Positions 52,092-55,433 of a DNA stretch of 64,000 bases are shown piece by piece (position 1 is the first letter of the stretch; each line of letters begins with the position of its first letter). Below the pieces are notes generated by a model. It was not told where the DNA came from. It did not search any database and was given only the letters and a program-made list of their open reading frames with translations. The stretch covers positions 1-64,000 of the forward strand of contig NZ_JAAMFN010000007.1 of assembly GCF_013376095.1 (NCBI RefSeq), in the 5' to 3' direction. The stretch is from Arthrobacter sp. SDTb3-6 (GTDB lineage Bacteria; Actinomycetota; Actinomycetes; Actinomycetales; Micrococcaceae). Both the position numbers and the translations under genes were made by a program.

Positions 52092-52201
52092 ACCAGCGCC
52101 GCACGGGCTCCCCGGACGGTGCCGCGCCGTCGCTGGGGGGACGCTGAGAAGGCAGGGGGCGGCAATTAGGCAATCGACACCCGCGGAGGCAAGGTTGAAC
52201 C

Positions 52202-53677
52202 ATGATTCCACCCAAGCCGCGGCCCCGCCCGTCCCGACGCCGGGGACGTGCCTGGGGCGTTCGCAAAAGGGCGACGGCGACGGCCGTCACCGTGGTTGCC
52301 CTTGCCCTGGTTGCCGGCGGCCTGCTGTTGCTGGTGCTCCTGCAGAGCTCACTCATCGCCACCACTGAAAGGGCCGCGAAGTCCACGGCATCGGACGTGG
52401 TGGCGATGATCACCAGCGAGGATGTCGAGGACGCGGGGGATTCACTGGCCACCACGGCCCACACCGGCCAGTATGTGCAAATCATCAGCCCGCAGGGGGC
52501 CGTGGTGGCGGCCTCGCAAAAATCGGCGGCCAGGGCTCCGCTCTCGCAATTGCGCCCCGGCCCGGGGGCGACCAAGACCGAGGACGTCTCCAGCCTGCAG
52601 GGCATTGGCGACACGGACGCGTTCCTCATCACCGCCGAAGGTGTGCAGACCGGGCAGGGCACCTACACCGTCGTCGTGGCCTCGACAGTGCAGGTCGAGG
52701 CGGACTCCGTCGCCACGGTCGCCTGGTTCCTCCTGGGCGCCACACTCGTGCTTCTCGTGGTGGTGGGCGTTTCGGTGTGGATCCTGGTGGGGAGGTCACT
52801 GCGCCAGGTCGGGAGGATCCGCGGCCAGGTGGCCCGGATCAATGCCAGCCACCTCAGCGAGCGGGTGGACGTCCCGGCCACCAACGACGAAATCCACCGC
52901 CTGGCCCTGACCATGAACACCATGCTCGACCGGCTCCAGGCCTCCGACGTCGAACAACGCCGCTTCGTTTCCGACGCCAGCCACGAACTGCGCAGCCCCC
53001 TGGCCACCATCAGCGCCGGGCTGGAAATCGCCGTCGCCGACCACAGCGGGGAGAGCTGGCGGGAACTCCAGAACATGCTCAGCAGCGAGACGGCCCGCAT
53101 GAGCTACCTTGTCGATGACCTGCTCACCCTGGCCAAGGCCAATGACGACGGCATCCACGTCACGGCCCAGGACGTCGACCTGGACGACATCCTGGCGGCC
53201 GAAATCCGCCGGCTGCGGTCCCTGAGCCCGCATCACATCACGGCCAGCCTGACCCCTGCCCGGGTCACCGGCGATGGACACCGCCTGGGCCAGGTGCTGC
53301 GCAACGTGCTGGACAACGCCAACCGCCACGCAAGGTCGGCCATCACCGTGGGGCTGGGTGCAGGCCCGGGGGTGGTGCGCGTCGTCATTGACAACGACGG
53401 CGACCCCGTACCCGAGGCCGACCGCGAGCGGATCTTTGAGCGGTTCGTCCGCCTGGACCAGAGCCGCTCCCGCGAAAGCGGCGGCAGCGGACTGGGCCTG
53501 GCCATCGCCGCCACCATCATGAAGGCCCACCACGGCACCATCACCACCAGCTCGACGCCGGCCGGAGGCTGCCGCTTTGAACTGCTCCTATCCCCGGGTG
53601 CCGTGGACTGGGGCCTGGGCGGGGTCACGGTCTGCGGAGAGCAGGTAACCCATGCCACGGACGGTGGAGAGGGTTGA
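52202..53677 (+). CDS. Two-component sensor histidine kinase
   Basis: The 491 residues have two membrane segments (TAVTVVALALVAGGLLLLVL and VAWFLLGATLVLLVVVGVSV) flanking an extracellular domain of about 130 residues. HAMP follows, then the phospho-acceptor box FVSDASHELRSPLATISAG, N-box LRNVLDNANRHA and G-boxes VIDNDGDPVPEADRERIFER and GSGLGLAIAATIM. The normal kinase end is about FELLLSPG. The reading frame then runs on for about 22 residues through the antisense of the response-regulator gene, giving a 90-base 3' overlap. The partner is the convergent OmpR-type regulator. The stimulus is unknown. Confidence 0.9.
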   Translation: MIPPKPRPRPSRRRGRAWGVRKRATATAVTVVALALVAGGLLLLVLLQSSLIATTERAAKSTASDVVAMITSEDVEDAGDSLATTAHTGQYVQIISPQGAVVAASQKSAARAPLSQLRPGPGATKTEDVSSLQGIGDTDAFLITAEGVQTGQGTYTVVVASTVQVEADSVATVAWFLLGATLVLLVVVGVSVWILVGRSLRQVGRIRGQVARINASHLSERVDVPATNDEIHRLALTMNTMLDRLQASDVEQRRFVSDASHELRSPLATISAGLEIAVADHSGESWRELQNMLSSETARMSYLVDDLLTLAKANDDGIHVTAQDVDLDDILAAEIRRLRSLSPHHITASLTPARVTGDGHRLGQVLRNVLDNANRHARSAITVGLGAGPGVVRVVIDNDGDPVPEADRERIFERFVRLDQSRSRESGGSGLGLAIAATIMKAHHGTITTSSTPAGGCRFELLLSPGAVDWGLGGVTVCGEQVTHATDGGEG

Positions 53678-54298
53678 CAGATTGAAGGGGGCGTCGATCT
53701 TGCGACGCAAATACCCTATGTAGACCTCCACGACGTTGTCGCCGCCTTCAAAGGTAGGATCCCAGACGTTGTCGAGGATTTCGGCCTTCGAGACCACCGC
53801 GTCATGCCGGCGCATGAGGAAATGCAGGAGCCCGTACTCGCGCGCGGTCAGGGGGACCAGCGTGTCGCCGCGGTGGACGCTGCGGTTCATTGGATCCAGC
53901 CGCAACGTCCCCAACGTCATCACGACGGGACGCTCGGGTGCCCCGCGCCGGATCAGGGCCCGCAGCCTGGCCACCAGCACCAGGAAGCTGAATGGCTTCG
54001 TCAGGTAGTCATCCGCGCCCAGGTCAAAGGCATCGGTCTGGTCATATTCACCGTCCTTGGCCGTGAGCATCATGACCGGTGTCCAGATCATGCACCCGCG
54101 CAATTCCTTGAGCACGTCATAACCGCTCTTCATCGGCAGCATCAAGTCCAGGACAATCACGTCGTAGGGATTTTCCGTTGCAGCCCACAGGCCGCTGACC
54201 CCGTCATGGACGACCTCCACAACAAATCCTTCATTCGTCAAGCCGCGCCGCACCGTCTCGGCCAACAGCGTCTCGTCTTCCACCAATAAGATCCGCAT
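53588..54298 (-). CDS. OmpR-family response regulator
   Basis: The 236 residues form a receiver domain (MRILLVEDETLLAETVRRG; phospho-acceptor aspartate 51 in VIVLDLMLPMKSGYDVL; MLTAKD; lysine in YLTKPFSFLVL) and a winged helix DNA-binding domain (LTAREYGLLHFLMRRHDAVV; EVYIGYLRRKI). It is convergent with its presumed kinase, not in tandem as is usual, and the two genes overlap by 90 bases at their 3' ends. CTGAG repeats spaced 11 bases lie just upstream of its start and are likely its own binding site. Confidence 0.9.
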   Translation of the reverse strand: MRILLVEDETLLAETVRRGLTNEGFVVEVVHDGVSGLWAATENPYDVIVLDLMLPMKSGYDVLKELRGCMIWTPVMMLTAKDGEYDQTDAFDLGADDYLTKPFSFLVLVARLRALIRRGAPERPVVMTLGTLRLDPMNRSVHRGDTLVPLTAREYGLLHFLMRRHDAVVSKAEILDNVWDPTFEGGDNVVEVYIGYLRRKIDAPFNLSTLSTVRGMGYLLSADRDPAQAPVHGTRG

Positions 54299-54337
54299 CC
54301 ATCTCCTTCCCTCGTAGATGAGTATGGCGCACCCAAG

Positions 54338-54353
54338 CTGAGACGTTCCTGAG
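54338..54353. promoter_or_regulatory. Direct repeat CTGAG-N6-CTGAG, candidate OmpR-type site (RR side)
   Basis: Two CTGAG units begin 11 bases apart (54338 and 54349), about 40 bases upstream of the response-regulator start. An 11-base period is the hallmark of OmpR/PhoB-family sites. Confidence 0.6.
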
Positions 54354-54418
54354 GAAAAGGCAGGACCGTCGCGGCGCCGGCTGCGGTCACCGCACCGCGC
54401 CCGGGCGTCCCGGACCTT

Positions 54419-54434
54419 CTCAGCGGCTTCTCAG
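54419..54434. promoter_or_regulatory. Direct repeat CTCAG-N6-CTCAG, candidate OmpR-type site (nuclease side)
   Basis: Two CTCAG units begin 11 bases apart (54419 and 54430), embedded in CTTCTCAGCG repeats. They are the exact inverse of the CTGAG pair at 54338, so the two sites face each other in the gap between the response regulator and the HNH gene. Confidence 0.6.
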
Positions 54435-54548
54435 CGTGGTCCTGTGACACTGGCAATGCGGGAAACGCCACGGGCATCCCCGATGCAGGCGCCGTGGATC
54501 CACAGCGGATCCACGGCGAAAACCGGTAACACGCAAGGAGAACTGCAG

Positions 54549-55433
54549 ATGCGATATTGGTGGGTCCACCATGGCCGGAACTACGGGACAGCGATCGAGA
54601 AGGGCACCCTCTGGGTCTGCCACGCGGCCGACGGGGCCCCGGCGCAAAGCCTTGAGGCGTTGAAAAAGATGGAACAGGGCGATGTCGTCTTCCACTACTT
54701 CGGGCCGTACGTGCGGGCCGTCAGCGTTGTCGCGAAGGAACGGCACGCCCATGCGCGGCCTGAGGGATACGAGCGGCTGGTGGGGGAGGGCGACGACGGC
54801 TGGCTCGTCCGGGTCAACACCGTCGCGACCGGGTTATGCGTCCACCGGGACCGCGCGGCGAAACTGTCCGGGCGCGGCGGCCCGGGGCCGTTCACCGAGT
54901 CGGGGAAACCCGTGCGGCGCTATGTGTCCCCCCTCAGCGACGACGACGGCGCGGCACTCCTGGCTGCAGCTCGCATCGACGGGTTGCCGTCGCCGGCGGG
55001 GAGCCTGCGCGGACGCCCGGGCAGTGTGTGGGGCACTGGAGACCCGGCCGATTCGGCCACCCGCCTGGAACAGGAGTATCTCCATAAAAACCTGTTGCGC
55101 GGACGCCGGAGTGCGAGCTGCTCCATCTGCGGCGAAGATCTGCCCGCCCGGCTCCTGAACGCCGGTCACATCAAGCCGCGCGAGCAATCCACCGACCGGG
55201 AACGCATGGACTTCGAGGCCAACGCCATGCTCACCTGTGCGCTGGGCTGCGACGCCCTGTATGCGTGGGGCTGTGTCCTCATCGACGGCGACGGCACCAT
55301 CCGGAGGGGTGTGCCGGCTGAGACCCGCTGCCTCGAGGAAGCCGTCAATGCACTGCTCGGGCGGCGATGCACCGCCCATGACGAACGGACGGCACCTAAT
55401 TTTGCCGCAACCACCCGGTTGGTCCTCGGATAG
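54549..55433 (+). CDS. EVE-like/HNH endonuclease, probable modification-dependent restriction enzyme
   Basis: The 294 residues start at ATG 54549 behind AAGGAG. The N-terminal about 110 residues (YWWVHHGRNYGTAIEKGTLW, then MEQGDVVFHYFGPYVRAVSV) resemble EVE/PUA-like modules that read modified bases and are often fused to nucleases. The C-terminal part has an HNH core: CSICGEDLPARLLNAGHIKP, then NAMLTCALGCDALYAWGCV. The linker contains ATRLEQEYLHKNLLRGRRSA. This layout fits type IV, modification-dependent restriction. It stands alone, and its upstream region carries the CTCAG repeats. A different role for the N-terminal domain is possible. Confidence 0.75.
   Translation: MRYWWVHHGRNYGTAIEKGTLWVCHAADGAPAQSLEALKKMEQGDVVFHYFGPYVRAVSVVAKERHAHARPEGYERLVGEGDDGWLVRVNTVATGLCVHRDRAAKLSGRGGPGPFTESGKPVRRYVSPLSDDDGAALLAAARIDGLPSPAGSLRGRPGSVWGTGDPADSATRLEQEYLHKNLLRGRRSASCSICGEDLPARLLNAGHIKPREQSTDRERMDFEANAMLTCALGCDALYAWGCVLIDGDGTIRRGVPAETRCLEEAVNALLGRRCTAHDERTAPNFAATTRLVLG

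What the first reader, a model, noticed from the sequence alone, without database searches (positions are those of the whole stretch)
54338..54434. Facing 11-bp-spaced repeats shared by a response regulator and an HNH nuclease gene
CTGAG-N6-CTGAG and its exact inverse CTCAG-N6-CTCAG lie 66 bases apart in the gap between the two divergent genes. The 11-base period is that of OmpR-type sites. It suggests that a two-component system controls a probable restriction enzyme, that is, signal-gated defence.
Basis: partly seen in the sequence, partly recalled or inferred. Interest (0 to 1): 0.75.

Follow-up and report, generated by a model that had tools for sequence, protein, structure and literature searches.

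The report
Regulator-controlled promoter of DNA-modification-reader gene
Two facing repeats between a response-regulator gene and a nuclease-like gene look like real binding sites of that regulator: related soil bacteria keep the same sites in front of the regulator and of cell-envelope genes, and one relative keeps a weaker copy in front of the nuclease-like gene even though it lies far from the regulator.

Summary
The repeats are real and non-random. Each is CTCAG-N6-CTCAG followed after exactly 11 bases by a -10-like hexamer (CATACT towards the response regulator, GACACT towards the EVE-HNH gene), the layout of an OmpR/PhoB-type activator replacing the -35. The 33-bp pattern occurs in 8 of 23 genus genomes, the same 8 that carry this regulator. 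In relatives its recognised targets are the regulator itself, a divergent PAP2/MprF-like operon and a DedA-like gene: an envelope/lipid regulon. Here the EVE-HNH gene stands where PAP2/MprF stands in six relatives. In Arthrobacter silviterrae the EVE-HNH orthologue is on another contig, yet has a one-mismatch site at the same distance from its ATG, and detectable promoter homology starts at the site. So control of EVE-HNH by this two-component system is well supported, though only by sequence and in only two genomes. 'Restriction enzyme' and 'defence' are weaker: the window protein keeps His207 and Asp235 of the HNH site but has Ala for the third catalytic residue; the A. silviterrae orthologue lacks the His and that Asp. 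Most likely an autoregulated envelope-stress two-component system has recruited an EVE-HNH protein of uncertain nuclease activity.

The parts
54338..54353 (-). Tandem repeat CTCAG-GAACGT-CTCAG: predicted response-regulator site of the regulator's own promoter
   Evidence: similar place and spacing upstream of close orthologues
54321..54326 (-). -10-like hexamer CATACT, 11 bases after the repeat, 22 bases before the regulator's ATG
   Evidence: CATACT at the same spacing in 9 of the 10 read loci with at least 84% regulator identity, window included
54419..54434 (+). Tandem repeat CTCAG-CGGCTT-CTCAG: predicted response-regulator site of the EVE-HNH promoter
   Evidence: CTCAG-N6-CTAAG at the same distance from the ATG (one base off) in the A. 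silviterrae orthologue
54446..54451 (+). -10-like hexamer GACACT, 11 bases after the repeat; identical in A. silviterrae
53588..54298 (-). OmpR-family response regulator (236 aa, receiver + Trans_reg_C)
   Evidence: Pfam PF00072 1.9e-24, PF00486 4.9e-23
52202..53677 (+). Sensor histidine kinase (491 aa), convergent with the regulator; the two ORFs overlap by 90 bp
   Evidence: HAMP, HisKA, HATPase_c; convergent in 7 of 7 related regions in which the kinase was found, in one of them about 2.2 kb away
54549..55433 (+). EVE-HNH protein (294 aa), distant relative of VcaM4I; nuclease activity uncertain
   Evidence: 6yex at E 2.8e-15 by profile, Foldseek 1.0e-15; HNH_2 18.6 bits, cut-off 21

Best explanation
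The gap holds two divergent promoters, each with a tandem 11-bp-spaced site for the neighbouring OmpR-type regulator placed where a -35 element would be (class II activation, as at PhoB-type promoters; that comparison is recalled). The phosphorylated regulator binds as a head-to-tail dimer on each site and turns on its own gene and the EVE-HNH gene. In relatives the same regulator's sites stand at its own gene, a PAP2/MprF-like operon and a DedA-like gene, so the signal is probably envelope or membrane-lipid stress. In this lineage the EVE-HNH gene carries its own copy of the site and occupies the place of the PAP2/MprF operon. Shown: sites, spacing, conservation, co-occurrence with the regulator, neighbouring genes. 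Inferred: binding, activation rather than repression, the signal, and what the EVE-HNH protein does.
For: Two exact sites with equal N11 spacing to -10-like hexamers. Pattern CTCAGN6CTCAGN12ANNCT: 22 matches in 8 of 23 genus genomes, exactly the 8 with the regulator at E <= 1e-70, 0 in the 15 without; reversed control 1 match. Family: matches in 19 of 37 genomes with the regulator (E <= 1e-95) against 18 of 258 without, Fisher p 2.5e-10; 60 matches against 7 for the reversed control. Recognised genes at the sites in relatives: regulator, PAP2, MprF-like, DedA-like. In A. silviterrae the pattern with up to 1 mismatch gives six genome-wide matches: two regulators, two DedA-like genes, PAP2 and the unlinked EVE-HNH gene (with 33, 66). 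EVE-HNH promoter homology between the two species runs from the site to the start codon region (local score 81 against a shuffle maximum of 31); upstream of the site none is detected (17 against a shuffle mean of 20).
Against: Only 2 EVE-HNH genes have the site: the other 19 of 21 loci read (one of them misplaced, see Tried and rejected), the other 5 of 7 (partly the same genes) and the one plasmid gene checked have none. The A. silviterrae site has a mismatch and scores 16.1, just under the weakest left-out training site (17.0), and reversed controls show that 1-mismatch matches arise by chance (1 there, 4 in this genome). Co-occurrence is partly circular, since many sites lie at the regulator itself. 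Of 31 regulator loci read (of 40 matches), 18 have a site with at most 1 mismatch within 200 bp upstream and 13 do not, mostly the more distant ones. Three regulator-positive genomes (G225, G264, G277) have matches near none of the six reference genes. No binding or expression data.
Confidence: 0.72

Rival explanations
1. Both repeats serve the regulator gene or a lost PAP2/MprF operon: the second site is a relic of the PAP2 promoter, and the EVE-HNH gene merely landed beside it and is not functionally controlled.
For: In 6 genus loci with PAP2 and/or MprF-like genes on the other side (G246, G221:C45, G052, G113, G247, G076; in G052 and G076 only the MprF-like gene was recognised), a facing site (0-1 mismatch) lies at -82/-83; this genome lacks a close PAP2/MprF copy (best 42% and 37% identity).
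Against: Site spacing differs (65 bases here, 10-11 in those relatives); the A. silviterrae EVE-HNH gene, not next to the regulator, has a similar site and -10, with detectable homology beginning at the site.
Confidence: 0.18
2. Signal-gated restriction: the two-component system switches on an active modification-dependent EVE-HNH nuclease as phage defence.
For: VcaM4I-like domain order and fold; His207 and Asp235, matching VcaM4I H224 and D250, are kept; VcaM4I restricts T4gt.
Against: Position of VcaM4I D254 is Ala239; of the pocket residues P24, W82 and Y130 only the last is matched in the profile alignment; the A. silviterrae protein with the weaker site has Leu and Lys for H224 and D250; recognised co-targets are envelope genes.
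Confidence: 0.3
3. The repeats are a chance pair or sites of another regulator.
For: Bare repeat is hardly more frequent genome-wide than its reversed control (3 against 2), also with the -10 and one mismatch (2 against 4); binding was not tested.
Against: Co-occurrence with this regulator and position in its own promoter across species.
Confidence: 0.04

Closest known systems
OmpR/PhoB-family response regulators with tandem 11-bp direct-repeat sites (PhoB pho box; recalled)
   Same: Receiver + winged-helix protein, two direct half-sites 11 bp apart upstream of a -10, site in its own promoter, divergent target gene
   Different: Half-site CTCAG; the motif in four spellings is in no paper of the held library; targets differ
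MprAB of Corynebacterium glutamicum (PMC12113857, passages seen)
   Same: Actinobacterial two-component system, positive autoregulation, envelope genes as targets
   Different: Published C. glutamicum motif is TKTTAAGAAM, and sigE, sigB, htrA are among the targets; orthology was not tested
HexRK of C. difficile (PMC10128005, passages seen)
   Same: Two-component system that controls an operon with an MprF-like membrane-lipid gene
   Different: Clostridial system, different partner genes, no EVE-HNH in the passages seen
VcaM4I EVE-HNH modification-dependent restriction endonuclease (PMC7897488, abstract and passages seen)
   Same: EVE then HNH, same order and similar length; catalytic His and first Asp kept
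   Different: Third catalytic Asp is Ala; two of three base-pocket residues differ; the window protein's subfamily has four invariant Cys (C191, C194, C230, C234), of which only the first has a Cys partner in VcaM4I
ArsRS control of the hsdR1-hsdM1 operon in Helicobacter pylori (PMC10810217, abstract and passages seen)
   Same: A two-component system affects a restriction-modification operon
   Different: Type I system with methyltransferase; acid sensing; phase-variable

Membership tests
OmpR/PhoB response regulators | Receiver domain plus Trans_reg_C | tested here: met
   PF00072 and PF00486 above cut-offs
OmpR/PhoB response regulators | Direct-repeat half-sites 11 bp apart next to a -10 | tested here: met
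OmpR/PhoB response regulators | Phosphorylation-dependent binding to those repeats | not testable with these tools
   needs footprinting or EMSA
A named OmpR subfamily (CopR/SilR, PhoB, MtrA, CseB and others) | Score above NCBIfam cut-off | tested here: not met
   best TIGR01387 216 bits, cut-off 279; none of the 25 families shown (of 89 matched) reaches its cut-off
VcaM4I-type EVE-HNH restriction endonuclease | EVE domain followed by HNH domain | tested here: met
   6yex by profile 2.8e-15 and by fold 1.0e-15, though overall TM only 0.42-0.44; AlphaFold pLDDT 80.8, pTM 0.50
VcaM4I-type EVE-HNH restriction endonuclease | Catalytic H224, D250, D254 | tested here: not met
   His207, Asp235, but Ala239; that position is Glu in 21, Gly in 3, Asp in 2 and Ala in 1 (window) of 27 aligned distinct proteins (one search read)
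VcaM4I-type EVE-HNH restriction endonuclease | Modified-base pocket P24, W82, Y130 | tested here: not met
   only Y130 is matched (Tyr125); P24 is Cys24 and W82 falls on Glu80, the latter in a loop where the profile alignment is less sure
VcaM4I-type EVE-HNH restriction endonuclease | Cleaves 5mC/5hmC DNA | not testable with these tools
   biochemical assay needed
Known anti-phage defence system | PADLOC model match | tested here: inconclusive
   PDLC03546 HNH, E 2.7e-5, residues 162-250 only

The most novel reading that the evidence does not exclude
An envelope/lipid-stress two-component system, whose usual targets are MprF-like, PAP2 and DedA-like genes, has in this lineage swapped its divergent lipid operon for an EVE-HNH modified-base reader, which may act as a non-cleaving or conditionally cleaving DNA sentinel raised when the envelope is attacked, for instance by phage or antimicrobial peptides.
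Probability: 0.2. Interest if true: 0.7.

Novelty: new variant of a known kind. Interest (0 to 1): 0.48.

Why it matters
It gives a testable binding code (CTCAG-N6-CTCAG-N11, then a -10) and target set for an uncharacterised Arthrobacter two-component system, and links an EVE-HNH gene to envelope signalling. If the link holds, production of a modification-reading protein would be conditional on envelope stress; my searches found no direct precedent (listings only).

Tried and rejected
MprA-box identity: I recalled a resemblance to the mycobacterial MprA box, but one search found no paper, another listed 8 of 322 papers, none holding the '8-bp direct repeat' term (listing only), and the C. glutamicum motif differs; dropped. 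Bare repeat as regulon marker: rejected, 81 matches with up to 1 mismatch against 65 reversed controls. Third genome match, in the PucR-type gene: intragenic. Relic of the regulator promoter upstream of the A. silviterrae EVE-HNH gene: suggested by an alignment but not above shuffles. Conserved leader RNA hairpin: strong in the window (z -2.9), not predicted in 5 orthologue leaders. First translation of the EVE-HNH gene was one base off, corrected. dN/dS of the EVE-HNH pair is about 0.24, but synonymous change is near saturation, so weak support for constraint.

Rows dropped or mishandled: the weight matrix used 17 of the 22 genus sites (left out: the two window sites, two G247 sites without a recognised target, one G143 site). 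In one search, 5 of 31 regulator starts were missed by my pattern and were added. In one search, the upstream of L012 was misplaced (contig edge); its counterpart L137 was read; loci with EVE-HNH fragments (L017, L019, L024-L030) were not read there. In one search, proteins under 251 aa were left out of the alignment, and 2 rows that do not align in the HNH region out of the counts. Targets were read only for matches that had a locus (18 of 19 in regulator-negative genomes). A residue check read a gapped copy of the protein and was wrong; one search is the right one.

Full report
Observation. The two repeats are at the stated places: CTGAGACGTTCCTGAG 54338-54353 on + and CTGAGAAGCCGCTGAG 54419-54434 on -, 65 bases apart. 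They are the only CTGAGN6CTGAG matches in the window; shuffles expect 0.10. In the 4.31-Mb genome the bare repeat has 3 matches against 2 for the reversed control, so the repeat alone is not a genome-wide signal.

Anatomy. Reading outwards, each repeat is followed after 11 bases by a -10-like hexamer: CATACT (54326-54321, towards the regulator ATG at 54298) and GACACT (54446-54451, towards the EVE-HNH ATG at 54549). With this hexamer in the pattern and one mismatch allowed, the genome has only these two matches; the reversed control has 4. A weight matrix trained on 17 sites from other genomes scores them 33.1 and 29.4; the next best place in the window scores 14.1. The regulator is an OmpR-type protein and the kinase has HAMP, HisKA and HATPase_c domains. 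The kinase ORF converges on the regulator ORF and overlaps it by 90 bp; the two are convergent in 7 of 7 related regions where the kinase was found, in one of them about 2.2 kb apart.

Relatives. In the genus, 8 of 23 genomes carry the regulator at E <= 1e-70. The pattern CTCAGN6CTCAGN12ANNCT gives 22 matches, all in those same 8 genomes; the 15 others have none, and the reversed control gives 1. This is partly circular because many sites lie at the regulator. In 295 genomes of the family, 19 of the 37 with the regulator at E <= 1e-95 have a match against 18 of 258 without; of 60 matches 41 are in the former, and the reversed control gives 7. Upstream of 31 regulator loci read (window included, of 40 matches), 18 have a site with at most one mismatch within 200 bp and 11 a facing site; those without are mostly the more distant ones. 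Recognised genes at the matches are the regulator, a divergent PAP2 phosphatase and/or rhomboid/MprF-like lysyltransferase, and a DedA-like gene (Pfam PF01569, PF01694, PF09924; VTT domain PF09335, the name DedA being recalled). Two G247 matches, one G143 match and the matches of G225, G264 and G277 have no recognised target; in regulator-negative genomes, 18 of 19 matches had a locus to read and none showed one of the six reference genes within about 1.5 kb. So in relatives this looks like an envelope/lipid regulon.

This genome. It has no close MprF-like, PAP2 or DedA-like homologue (best identities 37, 42 and 35%). Where six genus loci have PAP2/MprF-like genes, it has the EVE-HNH gene. EVE-HNH genes occur in 26 of 245 family genomes. 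It lies on a contig on which no regulator was found, 25 kb from the contig's nearer end. Searching that genome with one mismatch allowed gives six matches: both regulators, two DedA-like genes, PAP2 and this gene, against 1 in the reversed control (with 33 and 66). Homology between the two EVE-HNH promoters covers the site to near the ATG; none is detected above the site, as if gene and site travelled as one unit. The A. silviterrae site is weak (16.1 against a left-out training minimum of 17.0). Other EVE-HNH genes whose upstream was read lack it, including the second copy in this genome (C54).

The EVE-HNH protein. Its profile finds one sequence in the PDB up to E 1, VcaM4I (6yex), at 2.8e-15, and an AlphaFold model of moderate quality (pLDDT 80.8, pTM 0.50) finds it first by Foldseek, then YTH/EVE domains. 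In VcaM4I H224, D250 and D254 are catalytic, N241 structural, and P24, W82 and Y130 line the base pocket (PMC7897488, abstract and passages). By the alignments the window protein has His207, Asp235 and Ala239, and of the pocket only Tyr125. In 27 aligned distinct proteins the His is replaced in 5, the Asp in 1 (A. silviterrae, which also lacks the His), and the third position is Glu in 21, Gly in 3, Asp in 2 and Ala in 1. So the window protein may cut, but this is open, and the A. silviterrae protein probably does not.

Mechanism. The most economical account is an autoregulated two-component system that activates two divergent promoters from matching class II sites. That the regulator binds and activates is inferred. 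Literature: a two-component system affects a restriction-modification operon in H. pylori (PMC10810217, abstract and passages); an operon with an MprF-like gene is under a two-component system in C. difficile (PMC10128005, passages). A search for the motif in four spellings found no paper, and searches for two-component control of defence or of type IV or modification-dependent restriction showed no direct precedent in the listings (listings and abstract starts only). The EVE census paper mentions EVE-HNH architectures and, for a different EVE fusion (MmcQ/YjbR-EVE), nearby kinases and regulators (PMC7641849, passages).

Verdict. Observation confirmed; regulatory reading supported by comparison; nuclease and defence reading open.

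Noticed in passing
L031/L054, L008/L055, L009/L056, L010/L057, L134-L136, L177, and partial copies L019, L025, L026: In other Arthrobacter-type genomes (and for this genome's second copy on C54) the EVE-HNH gene sits beside a queuosine-precursor transporter, often with tgt and a conserved hypothetical gene; in three genomes only partial EVE-HNH matches lie there. The transporter and tgt were not found beside the window copy or the A. silviterrae copy.
   Followed up: partly
window 54490-54518 (+): Perfect 12-bp hairpin with a 5-base loop in the EVE-HNH leader, just upstream of the start; z -2.9 for the leader. Not predicted in 5 orthologue leaders.
   Followed up: partly
window 53588-53677: Kinase and regulator ORFs converge and overlap by 90 bp; the convergent order is kept in 7 of 7 relatives where both were found.
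   Followed up: no
window 52133-52148 (-): One-mismatch relative of the repeat (CTCAGCGTCCCCCCAG) upstream of the kinase start, pointing away from it; weak score 10.8.
   Followed up: no
L051 2804-4081 and L050 4919-7993: The regulator's upstream neighbour varies: a polyketide-cyclase-like ORF beside A. silviterrae copy 2, and a Tn3-type transposase (PF01526) upstream in G143; the regulator's own site stays in both.
   Followed up: no
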